This document shows positions 6,991-48,204 of a stretch of DNA of 64,000 bases, piece by piece. The stretch lies in contig OX235270.1 in assembly GCA_944472135.2 (NCBI GenBank), forward strand, positions 145,963,632 to 146,027,631, given 5' to 3'. The position numbers and the translations under genes were made by a program. The DNA is from Trichobilharzia regenti. Lineage: Eukaryota > Platyhelminthes > Trematoda > Strigeidida > Schistosomatidae. Below the pieces are notes generated by a model. It saw only the letters and a program-made list of their open reading frames with translations, made no database searches and had not been told where the DNA came from. Position 1 is the stretch's first letter, and every line of letters starts with the position of its first letter.

Positions 6991-7014
6991 CTGTCTCGTC
7001 GCATTTATATATGC
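6991..7014 (+). repeat. Probable diverged target site duplication, left side of inverted PLE
   Basis: A 24-nt segment beginning CTGTCTCGTCG and ending ATATGC reappears at 8038-8060 with a few substitutions and a 1-nt length difference. The two lie just outside the outer ends of a head-to-head PLE pair, as expected for a duplication made when the whole unit inserted. Confidence 0.55.
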
Positions 7015-7585
7015 GTGAAACTTGGCCACTGTGGTGGTAGTAGGTAATACCATATTAGTTTGTTCACTAGATGTATCACACAGTGAAACAGTATTATTTA
7101 CTGGATGACAATGTTTCGAACAAAATTTATTGTGGTTCATAATCATATCAGGTAGAATCACATGGCATTGAAACTTGAGTTTTAGAGTTTTCTTTGTCTT
7201 CTCCTATTTGTCGTCGTTGGGGTAGTAGAATTTTCCAGATATCTGGGTGGACAGGTGTTGAATCATTCCTATTAAACGTGTTCCCTCACAGTTGATTCGG
7301 TAAACAAAGCTTTTGTTATCAATCCTGCTGCCTCAACCCTGTCACATTAGATTTTAAAACTGTCATTCTATCCCATCCATCGTTGCTGTATGGTTGTTTG
7401 TGATGGCATGCAGTGAGTGCTATCTACGGCTGAACTATTCTCTTGATTTCTTATCTTATTTAAGTCAACCAGTCTAGATTTTGGTAGGTTTTTACGTTCG
7501 GCTAGTCTGACTGCCCCCTGTTCTACTACTTCGATCTATATATTTGACCTGATAATCATTCTAGCAGGGTATTAGATAAACTAAA
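7015..7585 (-). mobile_element. Penelope-like element A, left arm of inverted pair (minus)
   Basis: Starts at the PLE-A 3' terminus (CAGTGGCCAAGTTTCAC on the minus strand) and runs through conserved blocks GTTTCACTGTGTGATAC and TCGAAACATTGTCATCCAG into the decayed GIY-YIG C-terminal coding region. It stops near the AGGGTATTAGATAAACTA block. Frames are interrupted. It meets a plus-strand copy of the same family at about 7586. Confidence 0.8.
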
Positions 7586-8037
7586 TTATAAGTAATATTA
7601 ATGACAACATGCATGTCAAACATTCACAAGACAACACCAACAAAAAGGAATCTAAATCATCAGTAGTAATTCCATACAAAGGAGAAACCTCGGAAATCTT
7701 ATCCAGAATTTTTAACAATCCTGGCAGGAATAAAAGTGGCTGGCGTTCAAACCAACCACAAACTCAATTAGAAACAAGCTTTGTCTACTAAAGGATCCTG
7801 CCAGTGGAGTCTTTAAAACAAAACAATTTAGTTTATATAACACTCTGCTGGAATTATTATCAGGTCAAATACATAGATCAATGTAGTAGAACAAGGGGCA
7901 GTCAGACTAGCCGAGCGTAAAAACCTACCAAAATCTGGACTGGTTCACACAAATAAGATAAGAAATCTAGAGAATAGTTCAGCTATACCACCACCAGAAT
8001 AAATTTTGTTCGAAATTCTGTCATCCAGTAAATAATA
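7586..8037 (+). mobile_element. Penelope-like element A, right arm of inverted pair (plus)
   Basis: Plus-strand PLE-A sequence beginning at the AAT-rich linker (AATATTAATGACAACATG) and continuing through the VIPYKGETSEI-like peptide, the KPT..SIRNKLC region and a decayed GIY-YIG motif (GIY-YIG is the PLE endonuclease). It ends at the TCATCCAGTAAATAATACTG terminal block. It has lost part of the C-terminal coding region (jump near 8000-8010). Confidence 0.8.
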
Positions 8038-8302
8038 CTGTCTCGTCGTATCTAATATGCATCACTGTTTGATTGAGTGTACACAGTCATCGTTTCTATT
8101 GTGGTTTTTTATTACTCCAATGTTTATTTAACTTTCTATTTTGTTTGTTTGTTCAATCGAGTTCAGTGAAATGCATGCATGCGTCATTTCATGTAGATTC
8201 ACAAATCAACTAACCTTTTCTTTTCTATTCTCAATAATCCATAATCTTGATGTATGCCTTAATTTTTCTTTCTTATTTATTTATTTATTTATTACATTTT
8301 AG

Positions 8303-11344: not shown

Positions 11345-11620
11345 TGAATTTTAGATTTTCCCGTCGATTGATTGGACCGAAGTGCTCCTCGGTCTCAGGT
11401 TGACATGTCGACTTCTTGTGCAGATGCTTCGACTATGTCTGGACATTTAATTAGTATTTAATTGGTGGTCTAGTGGATAAGACTTTGGCGTTTGAAACTA
11501 TGGGCACTTGGTTCGAGCCTCGGTGGGAACAGGTACATCTAGTTAGCTGACGAGTCCCAAATAGGACGAAATGCGCATCCTGAATCCCACTGCTAGTCAC
11601 CATCCACCAATTAAATACAT
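11345..11620 (+). mobile_element. Smα-like SINE with hammerhead ribozyme
   Basis: Leader (GATTGATTGGACCGAAGTGC ... CAGATGCTTCGACTATGTC) followed by a tRNA-like Pol III promoter (box A TCTAGTGGATAAGAC at 11469, box B GGTTCGAGCCTC at 11510), then a hammerhead motif and the CACTGCTAGTCACCATCCA end. Smα is the schistosome SINE known to encode a hammerhead, so the family call is strong. A second copy at 16335-16585 shares the leader and promoter. Confidence 0.85.
11523..11590 (+). ncRNA. Hammerhead ribozyme (Smα type)
   Basis: Core CTGACGA (11547-11553), stem II GTCC/GGAC closing a CAAATA loop, GAAA (11568-11571), a short self-complementary stem III (ATGCGCAT) and cleavage site after C11579. Stem I has an inner pairing (TTAG with CTGA) and an outer pairing GTGGG (11523-11527) with CCCAC (11586-11590), separated by internal loops as in natural Smα ribozymes. 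All core bases are intact, so it may self-cleave. Confidence 0.85.
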
Positions 11621-17640: not shown

Positions 17641-17757
17641 TCCTGGATTCGAACGCCGTACTGTGGGTGCGTACTGTTGAAGAGTCCCAAACTAGGACGA
17701 AACAGCTGTCCAGTACTCACAGGTTTTCCAGTGGTTCTCTAACTAATGTCAGCTCAC
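17640..17757 (+). mobile_element. H2 SINE, partial plus copy
   Basis: Begins within the tRNA-like head (box B-like GGATTCGAACGCC), runs through a hammerhead and ends in TTCTCTAACTAATGTCAGCT. Lies tail-out relative to the minus copy just before it, so the two form an inverted pair. Confidence 0.7.
17671..17716 (+). ncRNA. Hammerhead ribozyme, H2 type (one core change)
   Basis: Stem I GTACTG (17671-17676) pairs perfectly with CAGTAC (17711-17716). Stem II GTCC/GGAC is intact, GAAA is at 17699-17702, stem III is ACAGCTGT, and cleavage would fall after C17710. The core reads TTGAAGA instead of CTGAAGA, so this copy probably does not cleave although its fold is preserved. Confidence 0.78.
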
Positions 17758-33405: not shown

Positions 33406-33409
33406 AAGC

Positions 33410-35569: not shown

Positions 35570-37720
35570 TGGAGAACGAGTCTGGCATTCGTTTCTTCGA
35601 TGTGAACTTATCAAGAAGTACCGGTGAAAAAACTACTTGAAAAAAGGATTAAATTTCAATGTAACAGTTAGTGAATTAAAACCAGAGGACGTCATTCCTA
35701 ACATAGAAGTAGCACTGAGTTCAACAGATAAGACGACAGCAGAAGAGGTTTGAGCACGATGTGCATTAACCCTGAAAAATCAAAAGAAAACTAAATCGAA
35801 CTTAACAAAATCGAAAAACGTTGTCATCGCAAAAGCTGACAAAGGAAACCCTACAGTAGTCTTGGATAAATCTGACTATATCAAGAAAGTCAGTCACTGA
35901 ACATACGTAGACGGGTCCGTATGAGGAAATTAAGAAGCCTGTAGATACATTAATAAATGAGGTTAGGAAATCTACAGCGGAATTAATACGCAGGATGAAG
36001 CTGTCACTGAGTGAGTCCAAATGGTTTAATTTAATGCCTAAAACTAATAATGCTGAAAGAATGTATGGTACTATTAAAATGCATAAACCAGGTTACCCTA
36101 TACGACCAATAGTAGATATCAGAAATACCCCTAATTATGAATTAGCAAAACACTTAGCTCTAATATTATGCTCCTTTAGAAATCGTTCAAACTCTGGACT
36201 AGCTAACTAATTCATATGCGATGAAAAATAATCTAAATGACATTCAACCAGAGAATGATGAAACAATGGTTAGTTTTGAGATATCTATTCCTTACACCCG
36301 CCTTAGAAGCAGTTAAGAGAGAACTAACTGCGGATCCTGAGCTCACTCACTCATAGGACGAAGCTGCCCATTGAGGAAATTATTTTAGGAATTCAGTTAT
36401 GCCTCACATCCACCATATTTAAATTCTTAGGTAATAAAATATATAGACGAACAGAAGGTGTAGCAATGGGATGGATCACCAATATCCCTTATCTTAGCAG
36501 ACATAATAATGAACAGCTGGGAAAATAGTGCTCTTAATACATTTACTCCTACTCCATAGATATGGTGAAGATATGTGGATGACACTTTCACACACAGTGT
36601 TAAAAACAGAACATATCTCTAGCTTCTTGACACACATAAACTCACTAATAGAGGGAATAAAATTCACATTTGAATCAGTAGATGAACGAGGAGAATTAGC
36701 TGTGATGTTAGATTGTAAAATAAGACGAATAGAAGAAGGTAAACTACACACTAGTGTGTACAGAAAACCAACTCATTCTAATAGATACTTAGACTTTAAT
36801 TCATCTCATCCGTTATCCGTCCGTGAAAACAGGCTTAGTTAAGTGTTTAACAAACTGAGCAGTAGCATTAAGTATTACAAGAAAATATCTAAATGACGAA
36901 ATGAAACAGATAGAAGAGGCGTTGGTGTTACATAACCAACTATCCTATAAAATTTATTCAGAAGATGAGAAAAAGTCAGAAGAATAATAAAAATATTGCT
37001 GAAACTTATAATGATATTATGAATAAGAGAGAATATAAGGCATCTACTTTTATACCATATAAGGAGGGAGGAGACATCTGAGACGCTACGTAGGATTCTT
37101 AATAATGGAGGGATTAAAGTGGCATTTAAACCTACAAACTCACTCAGGAAAGGACAAGCTCTGTGGGTTAAAGGACCCTGTCGGTTGACCCAATGAGACA
37201 AAATAATATAATTTACAAATTACCCTACAATGACTGTGAGTAAGGTCAACTACATAGGTCAGTCAAACACTAGTGGATCAGGAGTAGTTAGATTGCCTGA
37301 ACATAAGAATTCAGCTAAGGTAAGAATGGTTGACCGCGAGAAGATAAGTAATTTAGAAAAATGCACTCAGCGACTGCTCTGCATGCATTATCTCACAACA
37401 GTACAATGGGGTGGGTGGGAGAGAGTCAAAATCCTAGAAAATAATAAAGGTAGATGGAGAGAGAGACTGATTCAAATCAAATACCAGAGATATGGGACAC
37501 ATCATTACCAGTCAAATCACAGGATAATAGTAATAATAATAACTGATATAAGTATAAAACTTGGATACTGAAGTAGAGTGCTCGAAACGCGGTCATCAGT
37601 AAATATTAATGTATAACGACACTGTGTGATTTATCAAAATAAAGTCTTATCCACATTGGAGTTATACTCAACCCCAGTGTCCAAGTTTTATACTTAAATC
37701 AATAGGACCAATGGAACTCT
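35570..37720 (+). mobile_element. Penelope-like element A-prime, most complete PLE copy, decayed
   Basis: Blocks in order: LKKGLNFNVTVSELKPEDVI (35640), VVIAKADKGNPTVVLDKSDY (35820), GTIKMHKPGYPIRPIVDIRN (36065-36125), GVAMG (36460), RYVDDTF in a shifted frame (36557), LDCKIRRIEEGKLHTSVYRK then PTHSNRYLDF (36710), then KPTNSL and a decayed GIY-YIG (VNYIGQSNTSGSGVVRLPEH, 37245). It ends with CAGTGTCCAAGTTTTATACTT near 37675-37697. Many stops and frameshifts. From about 36230 it parallels 53155-54880. Confidence 0.85.
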
Positions 37721-39967: not shown

Positions 39968-42600
39968 TATTATTATTATTTCCTTTAATTTCTAGATGAA
40001 TATGAGGATTCAGCCCCTCGTCTCCATTACGTTCAGTTATCTGCCAAGGTTTTCACCTAGCTCCACGTCTACCCACATGCTTCCATCTCCTCCTCACATC
40101 AACTCCTCCATGTAAACCCACCCTCGTACTGACGACCAACTCACCGCCCGCTTCCCTTTCGGATGCCATTCGAGTGATGACCTAGCGTGTGATGTCAGTC
40201 ACTTGATGGTTTGTTTTCTCAGAGTATGGCCAATCCACCTCCATTTCTTTCTGCTTTCTTGTTGCACAGTCGGTTCCTGCTAGGTTGGTTCTCTCATTGC
40301 CAAAGATCCCACCCTGTTCCTGATCTTTTCTGGTCGGCCACCTGATATTGAGTGGTATTTAGCGAAGACAGCTGTTGATGAAGTTGTGTAGTTTGTTCGA
40401 AGTGGTCTTCGTGACGTGCTGGCCAAGTCTCTGATCCGTATGGTGAGTAGAACTGACTTCACATTGGAGTTGATAATCCGGATCTTATTTTCATTTGCAT
40501 TCTGAGCAGTGCTGTTGACCTCCACACAGACTTGAGAGAAATGAAAGCTTTGCTTGCCTTCCCGATCCTTGCTTTGATTATATCCTAGTCAGTTCCGTCC
40601 GCCTGTAGTTGAAACGATGCTTCCCAGATAGACAGGTAGGCAGGTAGGTAGGTAGGTAGGTAGGCAGGTAGGCAGGTAGGCAGGTAGGCAGGTAGGCAGG
40701 TAGGCAGGTAGGCAGGTAGGCAGGTAGGCAGGTAGGCAGGTAGGCAGGTAGGCAGGTAGGCAGGTAGGCAGGTAGGCAGGTAGGCAGGTAGGCAGGTAGG
40801 CAGGTAGGCAGGTAGGCAGGTAGGCAGGTAGGCAGGTAGGCAGGTAGGCAGGTAGGCAGGTAGGCAGGTAGGCAGGTAGGCAGGTAGGTAGGTAGGTAGG
40901 TAGGTAGGTAGGTAAGTAGGTAGGTAGGTAGGTAGGTAGGTAGGTAGGTAGGTAGGTAGGTAGGTAGGTAGGTAGGTAGGTAGGTAGGTAGGTAGGTAGG
41001 TAGGTAGGTAGGTAGGTAGGTAGGTAGGTAGGTAGGTAGGTAGGTAGGTAGGTAGGTAGGTAGGTAGGTAGGTAGGTAGGTAGGTAGGTAGGTAGGTAGG
41101 TAGGTAGGTAGGTAGGTAGGTAGGTAGGTAGGTAGGTAGGTAGGTAGGTAGGTAGGTAGGTAGGTAGGTAGGTAGGTAGGTAGGTAGGTAGGTAGGTAGG
41201 TAGGTAGGTAGGTAGGTAGGTAGGTAGGTAGGTAGGTAGGTAGGTAGGTAGGTAGGTAGGTAGGTAGGTAGGTAGGTAGGTAGGTAGGTAGGTAGGTAGG
41301 TAGGTAGGTAGGTAGGTAGGTAGGTAGGTAGGTAGGTAGGTAGGTAGGTAGGTAGGTAGGTAGGTAGGTAGGTAGGTAGGTAGGTAGGTAGGTAGGTAGG
41401 TAGGTAGGTAGGTAGGTAGGTAGGTAGGTAGGTAGGTAGGTAGGTAGGTAGGTAGGTAGGTAGGTAGGTAGGTAGGTAGGTAGGTAGGTAGGTAGGTAGG
41501 TAGGTAGGTAGGTAGGTAGGTAGGTAGGTAGGTAGGTAGGTAGGTAGGTAGGTAGGTAGGTAGGTAGGTAGGTAGGTAGGTAGGTAGGTAGGTAGGTAGG
41601 TAGGTAGGTAGGTAGGTAGGTAGGTAGGTAGGTAGGTAGGTAGGTAGGTAGGTAGGTAGGTAGGTAGGTAGGTAGGTAGGTAGGTAGGTAGGTAGGTAGG
41701 TAGGTAGGTAGGTAGGTAGGTAGGTAGGTAGGTAGGTAGGTAGGTAGGTAGGTAGGTAGGTAGGTAGGTAGGTAGGTAGGTAGGTAGGTAGGTAGGTAGG
41801 TAGGTAGGTAGGTAGGTAGGTAGGTAGGTAGGTAGGTAGGTAGGTAGGTAGGTAGGTAGGTAGGTAGGTAGGTAGGTAGGTAGGTAGGTAGGTAGGTAGG
41901 TAGGTAGGTAGGTAGGTAGGTAGGTAGGTAGGTAGGTAGGTAGGTAGGTAGGTAGGTAGGTAGGTAGGTAGGTAGGTAGGTAGGTAGGTAGGTAGGTAGG
42001 TAGGTAGGTAGGTAGGTAGGTAGGTAGGTAGGTAGGTAGGTAGGTAGGTAGGTAGGTAGGTAGGTAGGTAGGTAGGTAGGTAGGTAGGTAGGTAGGTAGG
42101 TAGGTAGGTAGGTAGGTAGGTAGGTAGGTAGGTAGGTAGGTAGGTAGGTAGGTAGGTAGGTAGGTAGGTAGGTAGGTAGGTAGGTAGGTAGGTAGGTAGG
42201 TAGGTAGGTAGGTAGGTAGGTAGGTAGGTAGGTAGGTAGGTAGGTAGGTAGGTAGGTAGGTAGGTAGGTAGGTAGGTAGGCAGGTAGGTAAGTGAAGGAG
42301 GTTGTTTCCTACAGATTTCTCACTTTTATGCTGGCTGATTTGTTGTCTGTTGTTGTTATTGCTGGTGTTGCTGTCAGTTTTGGCCAGGAATCTTGATCAC
42401 CGCAACTGTTTTTTCTATGTTCACCTGAAGTTCTATCTTCTCCGGAAGCTTCTTCTGCCTATTTGTTACTGCTTTTCACTTGCATATCTTCTAGTTTGTG
42501 GGGAATCAGATATATATCATCGGCGAAGTCTAGATCATCCGATTCTTCACAAAATACTGCTGTTCTTGCTTTGTTCAAGTCCATCTAAAGTGAATAAATG
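39968..42600 (-). mobile_element. RTE-2-type LINE 3' portion, split by a giant tetranucleotide array
   Basis: 3' part 39968-40630 and 5' part 42291-42600 form one minus-strand copy: tail at 39985-40010, C-terminal VKMEVDWPYSEKTNHQV-type peptides, VEVNSTAQNANENKIRIIN near 40520, then (beyond the array) LLDFADDIYLIPHKLEDMQ near 42530 with FADD. The array sits where the 50.14-kb sister has only about 45 bp of the same repeat. Broken frames. Confidence 0.83.
40632..42290. repeat. (GGTA)n tetranucleotide array, about 1.66 kb
   Basis: Pure tandem GGTA for most of its length, about 415 units. The left 260 bp alternates GGCA and GGTA units (an 8-bp higher-order period), with one AGTA variant near 40913 and one CAGG near 42281. 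It lies inside an RTE-2 copy. Confidence 0.98.
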
Positions 42601-42604
42601 CGCG

Positions 42605-42987
42605 AAATCCCTGTTGGTTTTCAATGGTTCTCTAGCTGAATAACATCAATTTGTGGTCTAACCTGTAAATCAAAATGTATGACATAAAACGTTGACTACT
42701 TACAAGTAGTATGAACATTGTCGTGAAATAATTTAACTGAGAATAAAGTGGATAGTTTTAGAATATCAATAATTAAGGGGATATTTGCAAGCAGAATGAA
42801 GCAATTCATTATAATTTCATCATTTCGTGATAGAAAAAATAAACTATGAAAAATAATGAAAGTCATCATGGTCAAATTGATAATTATGAAAATTCTTTTC
42901 GATAAATTCCTCTTCTGGCTCTACAATTATATACATGTGTTTTATAGATATGTGAATGAATATTTTTGCTAAATTATGAAAATAATT
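42605..42987. other. Flanking AT-rich DNA
   Basis: No gene. A stretch at 42895-42965 (CTGGCTCTACAATTATATAC) resembles 58895-58950. Confidence 0.45.
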
Positions 42988-43000
42988 TATAATGTCGTTA
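42988..43000 (+). repeat. Target site duplication, left
   Basis: TATAATGTCGTTA, repeated exactly at 45270-45282 on either side of the palindromic PLE. Confidence 0.85.
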
Positions 43001-44160
43001 ATATATGTGTAAAACTTGGGCACTGTGGTATTAAGTAATTCCATATTAGTTTGATTATTAAATGTATCACACAGTGAAACAGTATTGTATACTGGATGAC
43101 GTTTCGAACACAATTTATTGTTCATAATCATATCAATTTTTGTCACACGACTTCGAGATTTGATTTTTATAGTTTTCTCTGTCTTCTCCTATTTGTTGTA
43201 TGGGCAGTAGAATTTTCCATATATCTGGGACAGGTGTTGAATCATTCCTATTACATGTATTTGCAGTTGATTCGATAAACAAAGCTTCTGTTATCAATCT
43301 CTCCCTATACCCTGTGACATTAGATTTTAAAACTGTCATCCTATCCCATCCTATTGTATGGTTGTGTGTAACTGCATGTAGTGCTATAGCTGAACTACTC
43401 TCTAGATTTCTTATCTTATTCGGGTCAACCAATCTAGATTTAGCTAGGTTTTTATGTTCGGCTAGTCTGACTGCCCCTGTTCTACTAGTTTGACCTATGT
43501 ATTTGACCTCACAATCATTGCAGGGTATTAGATAAACTAAATTGTTTTGTTTTAATGGCTCTACAGGATCCTTTAACCGACAAAGCTTGTTTCTAATTGA
43601 GTTTGTGGGTTTGAATGCCACTTTTATTCCTGCCTTGTTAAGAATTCTGCGTAAGGCTTCCGAGGTTCCTTCTTTGTATGGAATTATTGTTGATGATTTA
43701 CATTCCTTATTGTTGGTGTCGTTATTAATATTATCATTATTATTATTATCACTATTGTTATTACCATTATTATTATTATTATTGTTATTATTATTATTGT
43801 TATCATTATTATTATTATCACTATCTCTGTTATCATTATTTATTTTATTTTTACATTTACTTACATATTTCTTGACTAATTTATCCGGGTAATTATTAAG
43901 TTTCAAGGCTTCTTTTATGTGTGTCACTTCCTGTCTTAGATTTTCCTTGGTACTACTTAGTTTTTGTGCTCTGTCACTTAAACATTTCACTAATCCTATT
44001 TTTACTGACATAGGATGGGATGATCGGAAATCCAAATATCTGTTTGAATGTGTGGGTTTTCTGTAAACACTAGTGTTTAACTTCCCATCTTCTTTCCTTT
44101 TAACGTTGCAATCTAACATTGGAAGTTCCCCTTCCTGACTTTCCAATTCATAAGTGAATT
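43001..44160 (-). mobile_element. Penelope-like element A, left arm of near-perfect palindrome
   Basis: Minus-strand PLE-A from its 3' terminus (CAGTGCCCAAGTTTTACACA at 43005-43024) to a 5' truncation inside the RT (QFTYELESQEGELPML). Bases 43041-44149 pair with 44161-45269. It has 40 nt more of 3' end than the right arm and 11 nt more at the centre. Confidence 0.92.
43133..44160 (-). CDS. PLE-A RT thumb, Asn-rich linker and GIY-YIG endonuclease, open frame (5'-truncated)
   Basis: Open in one frame down to a stop at 43133-43135. In a 352-residue reading that starts at 44191 inside the other arm, residues 25-55 (LDCNVKRKEDGKLNT, SVYRKPTHSNRYLDF) are the end of the PLE RT. Residues 118-161 are almost all Asn, encoded by an AAT/AAC repeat. 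Residues 219-310 form the GIY-YIG nuclease: VYLIP, paired Cys224/Cys227, KYIGQT (231-235), Arg237, Arg242, EH (245-246), EALFIE (302-307). DIWKILLP closes the protein. The RT catalytic core is missing and there is no native start, so this is a relic or a nuclease-only frame. The intact frame suggests recent origin. Confidence 0.85.
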
Positions 44161-45269
44161 GAATTGGAAAGTCAGGAAGGGGAACTTCCAATGTTAGATT
44201 GCAACGTTAAAAGGAAAGAAGATGGGAAGTTAAACACTAGTGTTTACAGAAAACCCACACATTCAAACAGATATTTGGATTTCCGATCATCCCATCCTAT
44301 GTCAGTAAAAATAGGATTAGTGAAATGTTTAAGTGACAGAGCACAAAAACTAAGTAGTACCAAGGAAAATCTAAGACAGGAAGTGACACACATAAAAGAA
44401 GCCTTGAAACTTAATAATTACCCGGATAAATTAGTCAAGAAATATGTAAGTAAATGTAAAAATAAAATAAATAATGATAACAGAGATAGTGATAATAATA
44501 ATAATGATAACAATAATAATAATAACAATAATAATAATAATAATGGTAATAACAATAGTGATAATAATAATAATGATAATATTAATAACGACACCAACAA
44601 TAAGGAATGTAAATCATCAACAATAATTCCATACAAAGAAGGAACCTCGGAAGCCTTACGCAGAATTCTTAACAAGGCAGGAATAAAAGTGGCATTCAAA
44701 CCCACAAACTCAATTAGAAACAAGCTTTGTCGGTTAAAGGATCCTGTAGAGCCATTAAAACAAAACAATTTAGTTTATCTAATACCCTGCAATGATTGTG
44801 AGGTCAAATACATAGGTCAAACTAGTAGAACAGGGGCAGTCAGACTAGCCGAACATAAAAACCTAGCTAAATCTAGATTGGTTGACCCGAATAAGATAAG
44901 AAATCTAGAGAGTAGTTCAGCTATAGCACTACATGCAGTTACACACAACCATACAATAGGATGGGATAGGATGACAGTTTTAAAATCTAATGTCACAGGG
45001 TATAGGGAGAGATTGATAACAGAAGCTTTGTTTATCGAATCAACTGCAAATACATGTAATAGGAATGATTCAACACCTGTCCCAGATATATGGAAAATTC
45101 TACTGCCCATACAACAAATAGGAGAAGACAGAGAAAACTATAAAAATCAAATCTCGAAGTCGTGTGACAAAAATTGATATGATTATGAACAATAAATTGT
45201 GTTCGAAACGTCATCCAGTATACAATACTGTTTCACTGTGTGATACATTTAATAATCAAACTAATATGG
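44161..45269 (+). mobile_element. Penelope-like element A, right arm of near-perfect palindrome
   Basis: Plus-strand copy, 1109 nt, the same length as its partner segment 43041-44149. Starts ELESQEGEL and ends at CTAATATGG, where the left TSD sequence reappears. I saw no mismatch with the left arm in the parts compared, and the two translations are identical over the whole shared frame. Confidence 0.92.
44164..45177 (+). CDS. PLE-A RT thumb and GIY-YIG endonuclease, second identical frame
   Basis: 337 codons ending at the stop at 45175-45177; the upstream limit is the palindrome centre, and the first codon is TTG, not a true start. Protein content is identical to the left arm: RT end, Asn-rich linker, Cys pair, KYIGQT, R..EH, EALFIE, DIWKILLP. 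Both arms preserve the nuclease residues expected for target nicking. Without an RT core it could only act in trans. Confidence 0.85.
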   Translation: MESQEGELPMLDCNVKRKEDGKLNTSVYRKPTHSNRYLDFRSSHPMSVKIGLVKCLSDRAQKLSSTKENLRQEVTHIKEALKLNNYPDKLVKKYVSKCKNKINNDNRDSDNNNNDNNNNNNNNNNNNGNNNSDNNNNDNINNDTNNKECKSSTIIPYKEGTSEALRRILNKAGIKVAFKPTNSIRNKLCRLKDPVEPLKQNNLVYLIPCNDCEVKYIGQTSRTGAVRLAEHKNLAKSRLVDPNKIRNLESSSAIALHAVTHNHTIGWDRMTVLKSNVTGYRERLITEALFIESTANTCNRNDSTPVPDIWKILLPIQQIGEDRENYKNQISKSCDKN

Positions 45270-45282
45270 TATAATGTCGTTA
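45270..45282 (+). repeat. Target site duplication, right
   Basis: TATAATGTCGTTA, exact match to 42988-43000. Confidence 0.85.
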
Positions 45283-45830
45283 GTTGCTTCGCTTATGATA
45301 ATCGCTATCAGCTGTCAGACATATATATATATAGCCTTATCAAATAACTCTAAACTTAATAAGGATGAAAACCTCTCCATACTGATTTTTTTTTGACTGA
45401 TTATATCACAAATTTCATTACTGTGTGTGTATATATATTTCCAATTTTCTCATCGTTGTATCTTGAAAAAATCATGCTTAGAGAGTAAGTCTGTCTTTTG
45501 CTCAAATTTTATCCCTGTTTATGTATATACAGACAGTTGCATGGATAACATGAGCGCGTACAACTGACTAACTAACTAACTAACTGGATGGCTGTATTGA
45601 TTATCGTGTAATTCCAAATTTCTGTGTTGTGTTTCTATCTTCAAACTTAATTTTCTTTTCTTTACCTTCTCTTTTAAAATTGTCTGAAGGAAAGGGAAAT
45701 GGGTTATGGATAGGAATGTTAAAAGAAAGACAATTAGAAGAAGAACAGGAAACAGAGAGTGAGTGGAGATAGTGGGCGGGGGGGGGGTATAGGAAGTGAA
45801 ACGCAAGAAGGATCATTCACAGTCTGTGAT
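45283..45830. other. AT-rich spacer
   Basis: Native sequence between the palindromic PLE and an RTE-2 copy. TA run near 45322, AACT repeats near 45568, G-run 45777-45787. No gene. Confidence 0.5.
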
Positions 45831-47194: not shown

Positions 47195-47357
47195 CAGCGA
47201 ATAAGCTAAATTGTTTTGTTCTAAAGGCTCCACTGTCAGGATTGATCCTTTAACCGACAAATCTTGTTTTCAATTGAGTTTGTGGGTAACTGAATGCCAA
47301 CCACTTTTATTCCTGCCAGCATTGTTAAGAATTCTGAGTAAGGTGGTTTCCACATTC
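47195..47357 (-). mobile_element. Penelope-like element A, short left arm (minus)
   Basis: Minus strand: AAGGATCAATCCTGACAGTG region and the KPTNS..NKICRL block, up to a junction near 47357. Its outer end is cut at the RTE-2 tail, so the 3' terminus is missing. Confidence 0.68.
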
Positions 47358-48030
47358 AATTACTCACAAACTCAATTAGAAACAAGCTTTGTCGGTTAAA
47401 GGATCCTGCCAGTGGAGCCTTTAGAACAAAACAATTTAGTTTACCTAATACCCTATCTGCAGTGATTGTCGGGTGAAATACATATTTACATACATTTATG
47501 AAATACATAGGTCAGGCGGTAGAACAGGGTCAGTCAGTCACACTAGCCGAGCATAAAAACCTACCAAAATCTAGATTAGTTGACCCGAATAAGATAAGAA
47601 ATCTAGAGAATAGTTTAGCTGGCCATAGCACTACATGCAGTTACACACAACTACATAATATGATGGATAGGGTAAGATGACAGTTTCAAAATCTAATGTA
47701 ACACGGTGGAGGGAGAGATTGATAACGGAAGCTTTGTTTATCGAATCAACTGAGAGAGAACACGTGTAAAAGGAATGATTCAACAACTGCCCATCCGGAT
47801 ATCTGGAAAATTCCACAACCCGTACGACAAATAAAAGGGAACAAAGAAAACTATAAAACTCAACTTTCGAAGTCATGTGATTACAACTGATATGATTATG
47901 AAGAATAAACTGTGTTTGAAACCTGGTCATCCAGTAAATACAAATACTGTTTCACTCACTGTGTGATATATCTAACAAACAAACCAACATGGAATTACTT
48001 ACTACCATAGTGCTCAAGTTTTACACAGAT
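47358..48030 (+). mobile_element. Penelope-like element A, right arm (plus)
   Basis: Plus strand from ACAAACTCAATTAGAAACAA through a decayed GIY-YIG (VKYI near 47475 and KYIGQAVEQGQSVTLAEHKN at 47500), DIWKIP and the terminal CATCCAGTAAATACAAATAC, CACTCACTGTGTGATAT and CATAGTGCTCAAGTTTTACAC. Contains a short local duplication of CATACATTTATGAAATACAT near 47480-47505. Confidence 0.75.
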
Positions 48031-48204
48031 ATTCATATAACTTCAAGTTAATCCTCATTCACTGTCGACGCATCTGTAATATGAGCTGACATGTCAACAG
48101 GAAGCCCAACATTTTAGTCAAGACAACCAACAGAAGAATGTAAATAGACTGAGGAAATAATAACTGATGCCAGTTACACATAAGAGATGGTTCTCGTAGC
48201 CTAA

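What the first reader, a model, noticed from the sequence alone, without database searches (positions are those of the whole stretch)
42988..45282. Palindromic Penelope-like element inserted as a single unit with a 13-nt target duplication
Two PLE-A copies lie head to head: 43041-44149 and 44161-45269 are equal-length (1109 nt) inverted arms around an 11-nt spacer, with identical translations. The exact 13-mer TATAATGTCGTTA sits at 42988-43000 and again at 45270-45282, directly at the two outer ends. One duplication around the whole dimer implies it was integrated together, perhaps by template switching or twin priming in one event, and it argues against a simple assembly artefact. Complex inverted PLE copies are known in other animals; a perfect example with both arms coding for an intact nuclease is unusual.
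Basis: partly seen in the sequence, partly recalled or inferred. Interest (0 to 1): 0.86.

Follow-up and report, generated by a model that had tools for sequence, protein, structure and literature searches.

The report
Two-sided head-to-head Penelope retrotransposon insertion
A mobile element in a bird-schistosome-like worm genome inserted as two mirror-image, cut-short copies in one event; most young copies sampled from the same genome are built the same way, with one long and one short outer end, which points to reverse transcription from both sides of a single staggered cut.

Summary
The palindrome is real: arms 43041-44150 and 44160-45269 (1110 nt each, no mismatch), 9-nt centre, 13-nt duplication outside. 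One correction: on the left, 40 nt (43001-43040) lie between duplication and arm. They are the element's own 3' "tail", which the right arm lacks.

The host genome was searchable. Of 35 young loci from one search, 25 are head-to-head dimers with one tailed and one tailless end, 9 are one-armed, and 1 is tailed at both ends but has mirrored host flanks. With four further loci the count is 29 of 29, or 29 of 30 with the mirrored one. Target duplications of 12-16 nt, mostly 13, occur in 22 of 25 dimers. Arm lengths are uncorrelated, either arm may be longer, and junctions are enriched for microhomology.

Best reading: two-sided target-primed reverse transcription. Each strand of one staggered break primes a cDNA, one from each of two adjacent start sites (reported in vitro for a lizard Penelope-like element), and the two are joined head to head. 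The window copy's symmetry is the extreme of a broad distribution (chance 0.28 among 25). A cDNA snap-back cannot be excluded for this copy. The architecture is known for Penelope-like elements; the strict pairing is the useful addition.

The parts
42988..43000 (+). left copy of the 13-nt target-site duplication TATAATGTCGTTA
   Evidence: exact match; its last TTA could also be element sequence
43001..43040 (-). 'tail': the last 40 nt of the element's 3' end, present only on the left copy (distal start site at its outer edge)
   Evidence: same tail ends other copies in the window and genome; absent on the right
43041..44150 (-). left palindrome arm, 5'-truncated Penelope-like copy in antisense
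   Evidence: the left copy covers unit coordinates 1563-2719 including tail and centre
43136..44158 (-). open C-terminal ORF fragment of the left copy (RT end, Asn-rich linker, nuclease region)
   Evidence: Pfam GIY-YIG E=0.0032 on the right arm's identical fragment, below the curated cut-off
44151..44159 (-). 9-nt centre; it is native element sequence continuing the left copy
   Evidence: native antisense matches the window through 44166
44160..44166 (.). 7-nt microhomology TGAATTG shared by the two copies at the head-to-head junction
44160..45269 (+). right palindrome arm, 5'-truncated copy in sense, without tail (ends at the proximal start site)
44161..45174 (+). open C-terminal ORF fragment of the right copy
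45270..45282 (+). right copy of the 13-nt target-site duplication
7004..8044 (.). older (about 80% identical) head-to-head pair of a related copy, left arm tailed, right arm tailless and unequal, with an imperfect 14-nt direct repeat at 6991-7004 / 8038-8051 (13 of 14 match)

Best explanation
The locus is one insertion of a young Penelope-like retrotransposon (PLE) made by two-sided target-primed reverse transcription. The element's nuclease cut both strands of the target about 13 nt apart. The free 3' end on each side primed its own cDNA on PLE RNA: one started at the distal start site (left arm, with tail), the other at the proximal start site about 40 nt further in (right arm, no tail). The two cDNAs ran toward each other, stopped early, and their 3' ends were joined head to head through the 7-nt microhomology TGAATTG. 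Fill-in of the staggered cut made the 13-nt duplication. The near-perfect symmetry arose because both cDNAs stopped within about 16 nt of each other, by chance or at a native hairpin-forming stretch. Shown: anatomy, tail pairing, duplications, microhomology excess, independence of arm lengths. Inferred: cutting of both strands, two RT events, protein dimer, order of steps, RT stop at the hairpin.
For: One tailed (unit end 2716-2719) and one tailless end (2676-2692) in 25 of the 26 head-to-head pairs among the 35 loci (ends listed); the 26th is L036, which alone has mirrored flanks in a check of all 26. The same in 4 of 4 further dimers read. For two of these four (C4:25.04M and C455) I fetched the far end at the place where a tailless end should lie one unit on, and found it there with a shared 13-nt and 12-nt repeat. 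If ends were independent, about 0.49 of dimers would do this. Shared repeats of 12 nt or more in 22 of 25 dimers against 0 of 600 mismatched pairings. The tailed arm is longer in 8 of 25 and the tailless arm in 17 of 25; lengths uncorrelated (Spearman 0.15, P=0.49). So neither arm is generally a copy of the other. Junction overlap of 2 nt or more in 15 of 25 against 17% in simulated blunt joins (P about 1e-6). In 7 of 25 dimers the arms differ at a site where both states occur in at least two other loci (9 sites), which suggests two templates there. One-armed loci end either way (5 tailed, 4 tailless). In vitro, a lizard PLE protein cleaves and extends both strands and starts RT at two adjacent internal sites whose interval is the tail (PMC11167929, main text read). 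Unit ends here lie about 94 and 131 nt into the next ORF (arithmetic); the lizard stem-loop site is 111-118.
Against: Nine of 35 loci are one-armed, so two-sidedness is not obligatory. L036 is tailed at both ends. L014 has no clear duplication, and L009's 9 nt is also reached by 20 of 600 mismatched pairings. In L032 the repeat lies 16 nt from the tailless end, with filler between. One search hit (C8:164.92M, not read) ends between the two start sites, at about unit position 2707. Of 84 arm differences 66 have a state private to that locus, so two RNAs are suggested only in a minority. Simple-repeat and gapped positions were left out of that count. For the window copy the arms are identical and share two private variants, which fits one template equally well. 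The RT-stop hot spot rests on 2 of 56 other ends in a 17-nt interval (P=0.048 on a uniform assumption). Loci were chosen for one long arm, so lengths are not an unbiased sample.
Confidence: 0.74

Rival explanations
1. Snap-back of one cDNA: the left, tailed cDNA folded back at its 3' end (7-bp stem TGAATTG/CAATTCA, 9-nt loop) and copied itself, making the right arm; the hairpin was then joined to the far side of the cut. Self-priming was proposed for PLE inverted junctions in rotifers (PMC3846280, Discussion read).
For: In the window copy the tailed arm is the longer one by about 16 nt, the arms are identical and share two private variants, and the geometry fits a fold-back primer. A 29-nt fold-back is visible at the junction of L019.
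Against: The right arm ends at the proximal start site used by the other tailless arms (2676-2692), which a copy-back has no evident reason to respect. In 17 of 25 sister dimers the tailless arm is the longer one and cannot have been copied from the tailed arm. L049 is symmetric with a 1-nt centre, which seems too tight for a snap-back loop.
Confidence: 0.19
2. Assembly or sequencing fold-back artefact (for example a chimeric palindromic read).
For: No reads were available; one locus of the sample (L036) does look like that.
Against: The palindrome stops at the element's ends: mirrored host flanks match at only 30 of 100 nt, a direct 13-nt repeat brackets it, and the ends are asymmetric by a 40-nt tail. 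L036 shows what a fold-back looks like: 188 of 188 nt. The left flank has one full-length match in the assembly.
Confidence: 0.03
3. Copy of an already palindromic source: RNA of a head-to-head locus was reverse-transcribed as one piece.
For: Arms identical, one duplication.
Against: None of the other 24 dimers in the 25-dimer set has the same pair of inner ends. A one-piece copy would have one RT start, not one at each outer end. A genome-wide search for the junction sequence did not complete, so this is open.
Confidence: 0.02
4. Two independent insertions, or later inversion or recombination of a tandem pair.
For: Tandem units exist in this family (for example L012, L018, L022).
Against: A single duplication brackets the pair, the junction has microhomology and no host sequence between the arms, and the same arrangement recurs in 25 of 35 loci.
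Confidence: 0.02

Closest known systems
Penelope Pen2a_Av and related Penelope copies of the rotifer Adineta vaga (PMC3846280; abstract, Background, most of Results, Discussion read)
   Same: Outward-facing inverted terminal copy, optional 31-bp tail on one of the inverted repeats, one short duplication around the whole insert (9 bp), palindromes at the inverted junction, Asn-rich inserts in the ORF
   Different: In the described Pen2a insert the inverted part is a terminal repeat of about 0.2 kb; here both arms reach 1.1 kb. The authors favoured self-priming; the arm-length data here argue against that as the general route.
Poseidon PAc of Anolis carolinensis, in vitro (PMC11167929; main text read)
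   Same: Two adjacent internal RT start sites separated by the tail; both target strands cleaved and extended; start region about 100 nt into the next tandem ORF
   Different: In vitro cleavage and extension products, not complete dimeric insertions; strict one-of-each pairing per insertion is not stated in the text I read
Schistosome Penelope-like elements Perere-10 (S. mansoni) and Sj-penelope2 (passages of PMC4465651 only)
   Same: Same class in the same parasite family; that paper reports PLE fragments in Trichobilharzia szidati related to both
   Different: No sequence comparison with those two elements was made here
LINE-1 twin priming (recalled, not tested)
   Same: Two cDNAs from the two strands of one break, head-to-head join, one duplication
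   Different: Twin priming uses different segments of one RNA, normally not both bearing the RNA's 3' end; here each arm starts at a 3'-end start site

Membership tests
Penelope-like elements (canonical, GIY-YIG-containing) | single ORF with a reverse transcriptase domain | tested here: met
   full unit in L018: 905 aa read, PF00078 E=5.5e-7; the window copies lack this part
Penelope-like elements (canonical, GIY-YIG-containing) | C-terminal GIY-YIG endonuclease | tested here: inconclusive
   window fragment: PF01541 E=0.0032, 18.2 bits against a cut-off of 22.6; no GIY-YIG hit at E<=0.01 on the whole ORF. Two of 30 listed homologues are named 'predicted GIY-YIG superfamily endonuclease' by their source
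Penelope-like elements (canonical, GIY-YIG-containing) | tandem or partial-tandem copies giving pseudo-LTRs | tested here: met
   L018 holds about 2.4 head-to-tail units of 2719 nt; L012, L022, L025, L028, L034, L035 and L037 have tandem arms
Penelope-like elements (canonical, GIY-YIG-containing) | optional 30-40 bp tail at the 3' end of one copy | tested here: met
   40 nt at 43001-43040; 29 of 30 head-to-head pairs read have exactly one, the exception being L036 with mirrored flanks
Penelope-like elements (canonical, GIY-YIG-containing) | hammerhead ribozyme in the pseudo-LTR (reported for PLEs; I treat it as common, not defining) | tested here: not met
   no Rfam hammerhead match at E<=10 in 42900-45400; a degenerate one below Rfam's reach is possible
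LINE-1-type twin priming | the two head-to-head pieces are different, adjacent segments of one RNA (recalled) | tested here: not met
   both arms cover the same segment to its 3' end
Foldback or assembly palindrome | mirror symmetry continues into host flanks | tested here: not met
   window flanks match at 30 of 100 nt when mirrored; 100 of 100 for L036

The most novel reading that the evidence does not exclude
PLE integration is normally a two-sided reaction by an asymmetric protein-RNA dimer: one subunit starts reverse transcription at the distal site and its partner at the proximal site, one on each side of a staggered cut of about 13 nt. The tail would then be the footprint of that asymmetry, and inverted copies the regular product rather than an accident. 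Because some dimers look as if made from two templates, the asymmetry would lie in the complex, not in sharing one RNA.
Probability: 0.5. Interest if true: 0.75.

Novelty: new member of a known kind. Interest (0 to 1): 0.52.

Why it matters
How Penelope-like elements make inverted copies, and why only one of the two ends carries the tail, is still unsettled in the two papers read here; these elements are a third class of eukaryotic retrotransposons related to telomerase. This genome offers many young, high-identity insertions with clean target duplications. In it the tail behaves as a two-state marker (one tailed, one tailless end in 29 of 30 head-to-head pairs read) that separates two-sided priming from self-priming. 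The rule can be checked in any genome with young copies and in the existing in vitro system.

Tried and rejected
Snap-back copying as the general mechanism: rejected because the tailless arm is longer in 17 of 25 dimers. A single shared RNA for all dimers: not supported. Within-dimer divergence is below the between-locus median in 8 of 25, equal to it in 13 and above it in 4; but only 9 of 84 arm differences are shared polymorphisms, so this stays weak. A correlation of arm lengths: none seen. A shared RT-stop hairpin as cause of the symmetry: weak (2 of 56 other ends in the interval, P=0.048; predicted fold -10.3 kcal/mol for 46 nt, no shuffled control). A hammerhead ribozyme at the ends: not found; the miRNA-precursor matches at the palindrome centre in that call reflect the hairpin shape and all lie below their gathering scores. 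An empty allele: the left flank has a single full-length match in the assembly, so no second allele was seen; the right flank search did not complete. Organism: homologues point to Trichobilharzia (84% to a T. szidati protein); the species is not settled. Passages of a 2026 Drosophila virilis paper (PMC12910113) held nothing on inverted copies.

Counting choices: L036 was set aside from the accepted dimers because its flanks are mirrored. L050 (C1:181.8M) and C8:108.75M were not counted because an arm runs on into further tandem units and an end was not seen. For C4:25.04M and C455 both outer ends were read, but the inside was seen only as search hits. Six further pairs seen only as hits fit one tailed and one tailless end, namely C8:111.26M, C1:17.47M, C1:181.08M, C1:126.12M, C3:11.37M and C1:151.27M; they are not in the 29, because a tailed hit can also be a tandem read-through. 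Other hits showed one arm only and were not pursued. L019's junction overlap was measured at its own fold-back; between its two arms it is 2 nt, so 10 rather than 11 of 25 would have 3 nt or more.

Full report
Observation. The window holds an inverted repeat at 43041-44150 and 44160-45269, 1110 nt per arm without a mismatch, around 9 nt. The 13-mer TATAATGTCGTTA lies at 42988-43000 and 45270-45282 and nowhere else exactly in the window. The finding is right on these points, with slightly different arm and spacer lengths. It overlooked that the left 13-mer is separated from the palindrome by 40 nt, 43001-43040. BLAST of the element against the window shows that this stretch ends several older copies as well. 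Laid side by side, copies end either with it (43001 left, 7004, 19254, 48032, and the more distant copies near 37699 and 54884) or without most of it (45269, and the copies near 33406 and 59996). It is the 'tail' of Penelope-like elements.

Identity of the element. The arms encode the C-terminal part of a Penelope-like protein, with an Asn-rich linker. Pfam gives a sub-threshold GIY-YIG match (E=0.0032). The best database protein is from Trichobilharzia szidati (84% over 86%). The window's own genome (954 Mb, 548 contigs) is searchable; the best matches to one arm outside the window are 97-99% identical over nearly the whole 1109-nt query. One locus (L018) has about 2.4 tandem units of 2719 nt, with open frames of about 905 codons from the first ATG that follow one another almost without gap, and an RT domain. 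The longer, left window copy covers 1157 of 2719 unit positions (43%).

The family pattern. I fetched the 34 other loci and mapped them on the L018 unit. Of 35 loci including the window, 26 are head-to-head pairs. In 25 of these one end is tailed (unit end 2716-2719) and the other tailless (2676-2692, median 2682). The 26th, L036, is tailed at both ends, but its host flanks are mirrored over 188 of 188 nt; in a check of all 26, it is the only one with mirrored flanks (100 of 100 nt against 17-34 of 100 for the rest). Nine loci have one arm only, 5 tailed and 4 tailless; for these, a 400-nt look past the inner end showed no inverted partner beyond simple-repeat matches and short, weak hits. Four further dimers were read later: L049 and L059, and the pairs L054/L057 and L056/L058. 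For the last two, only the tailed end and a tandem read-through had been seen. I fetched the place where a tailless end should lie one unit further on, and found it, followed by a repeat of the left flank. In total 29 of 29 dimers with unmirrored flanks or a shared target repeat, or 29 of 30 with L036, have exactly one tail. If ends were independent, each dimer would do so with probability about 0.49, taking the tail frequency from the one-armed loci.

Target duplications. The longest string shared by the two outer ends is 9-16 nt in 24 of 25 dimers and exactly 13 in 15. In 600 mismatched pairings of ends from different dimers the median is 6, the largest 11, and 20 reach 9. So 22 of 25 dimers (12 nt or more) clearly exceed chance; L032 (11 nt, with 16 nt of filler at one end) probably does; L009 (9 nt) is uncertain and L014 (6 nt) has none. 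Some strings include bases that could be element sequence, so lengths are upper bounds. In the four later dimers the shared repeat is 12, 13, 13 and 16 nt. The window's 13 nt is the family's usual stagger.

Arm lengths. The inner ends lie all over the unit. The tailed arm is longer in 8 and the tailless arm in 17 of 25; Spearman 0.15, P=0.49. The window dimer has the smallest offset (15 in that script, 16 from BLAST coordinates). A minimum this small appears in 28% of shuffled pairings of the same arms. Its symmetry therefore needs no special cause. A second near-symmetric dimer is L049, with 128-nt half-length and a 1-nt centre; it was found in another search and is not in the 25.

Junctions. 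Overlap between the two copies at the junction is 2 nt or more in 15 of 25 and 3 or more in 11 of 25 (10 if L019 is measured between its arms rather than at its fold-back), against 17% and 6% in simulated blunt joins. This points to microhomology joining; the overlaps are taken from BLAST ends. Seven dimers have 1-146 nt of filler instead, the longest in L020. In the window the overlap is TGAATTG at 44160-44166: the left copy is native up to 44166 and the right copy from 44160. The native sequence here is predicted to fold into a hairpin (-10.3 kcal/mol for 46 nt, no shuffled control). Two of 56 other inner ends fall in the same 17-nt interval (P=0.048), so an RT stop at this place is possible but weakly supported.

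One or two templates. The window arms do not differ at 936 compared sites and share two variants seen in no other sampled locus, so they come from one template or from transcripts of one locus. Across the 25 dimers there are 84 arm differences; in 66 one state is private to the locus, and 9, in 7 loci, are sites where both states occur in at least two other loci (simple-repeat and gapped positions left out). Some insertions thus probably used two RNAs; most are uninformative. Within-dimer divergence is below the between-locus median in 8 dimers (the window among them), equal in 13 and above in 4.

Mechanism. A lizard PLE protein in vitro cleaves and extends both strands of the target and starts reverse transcription at two adjacent internal sites whose interval is the tail (PMC11167929). 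The natural reading of the pattern here is that each dimer contains one cDNA from each strand, one started at each site, joined at their far ends. Shown by sequence: anatomy, tail pairing, duplications, microhomology, independent lengths. Inferred: the two-strand cut, the protein dimer, the join by host repair. Self-priming, suggested for inverted junctions in rotifer Penelope (PMC3846280), fails as the general route here because the tailless arm is often the longer one. For the window copy alone it remains possible: the left cDNA end could fold back with a 7-bp stem, and the tailed arm is the slightly longer one. Against it, the right arm stops at the proximal start site.

Not an obvious artefact. 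Mirror symmetry stops at the element, the flanks are unrelated, the repeat is direct, and the ends are asymmetric. The left flank has one full-length match in the assembly. No reads were available.

Relation to what is known. The rotifer paper describes the typical Penelope insert as bounded by an inverted terminal copy, with a 31-bp tail optionally on one of the inverted repeats and a short duplication around all of it, and calls head-to-head the most frequently observed inverted arrangement. So the window finding is a new member of a known kind. The strict one-of-each rule, the length independence and the junction statistics did not appear in the text I read of these two papers; four text searches listed no other paper that I recognised from its title as treating it. 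Four look-ups of other Penelope papers found none held, so priority is not claimed.

Limits. The loci were picked by a match to a long arm, 40 candidates scored of 7571, so frequencies are not genome-wide. Tail calls rest on BLAST ends. One unread hit (C8:164.92M) ends between the two start sites. The species is inferred from protein similarity only.

Noticed in passing
window 11541-11585 and 17671-17716: Two type I hammerhead ribozymes above Rfam's threshold (62.2 and 49.9 bits), probably the ribozyme-bearing short repeats known from schistosomes (recalled).
   Followed up: no
window 40634-42290: A 1.66-kb, 99% uniform (AGGT)n array ends about 0.7 kb left of the palindrome.
   Followed up: no
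window 7004-8044: An older, about 80% identical head-to-head PLE pair with unequal arms and an imperfect 14-nt direct repeat; the architecture seems to predate the young subfamily.
   Followed up: partly
window 47201-48032: Another old head-to-head PLE pair: a tailed right arm and a short left arm that ends inside the element; a duplication was looked for by eye only and none stood out.
   Followed up: partly
L036 297-4313: PLE pair tailed at both ends with host flanks that are perfect inverted repeats (188 of 188 nt compared): a likely assembly fold-back or a real large palindrome.
   Followed up: partly
L019 3942-3992: A small fold-back of the tailless arm's own inner end (about 29 nt mirrored) inside the junction, which looks like a snap-back event.
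   Followed up: partly
L049 85-379: Mini palindromic PLE dimer: 128-nt half-length, 1-nt centre, 13-nt repeat at both ends, one tail.
   Followed up: yes
L018 1644-8075: Tandem PLE array whose ORFs follow each other almost without gap, so the pseudo-LTR is nearly all coding; the two kinds of outer end fall about 94 and 131 nt into the next ORF.
   Followed up: partly
G000:C8:164921764-164922924: A search hit whose 3' end falls between the tailless and tailed positions (about unit position 2707); a possible third kind of end.
   Followed up: no
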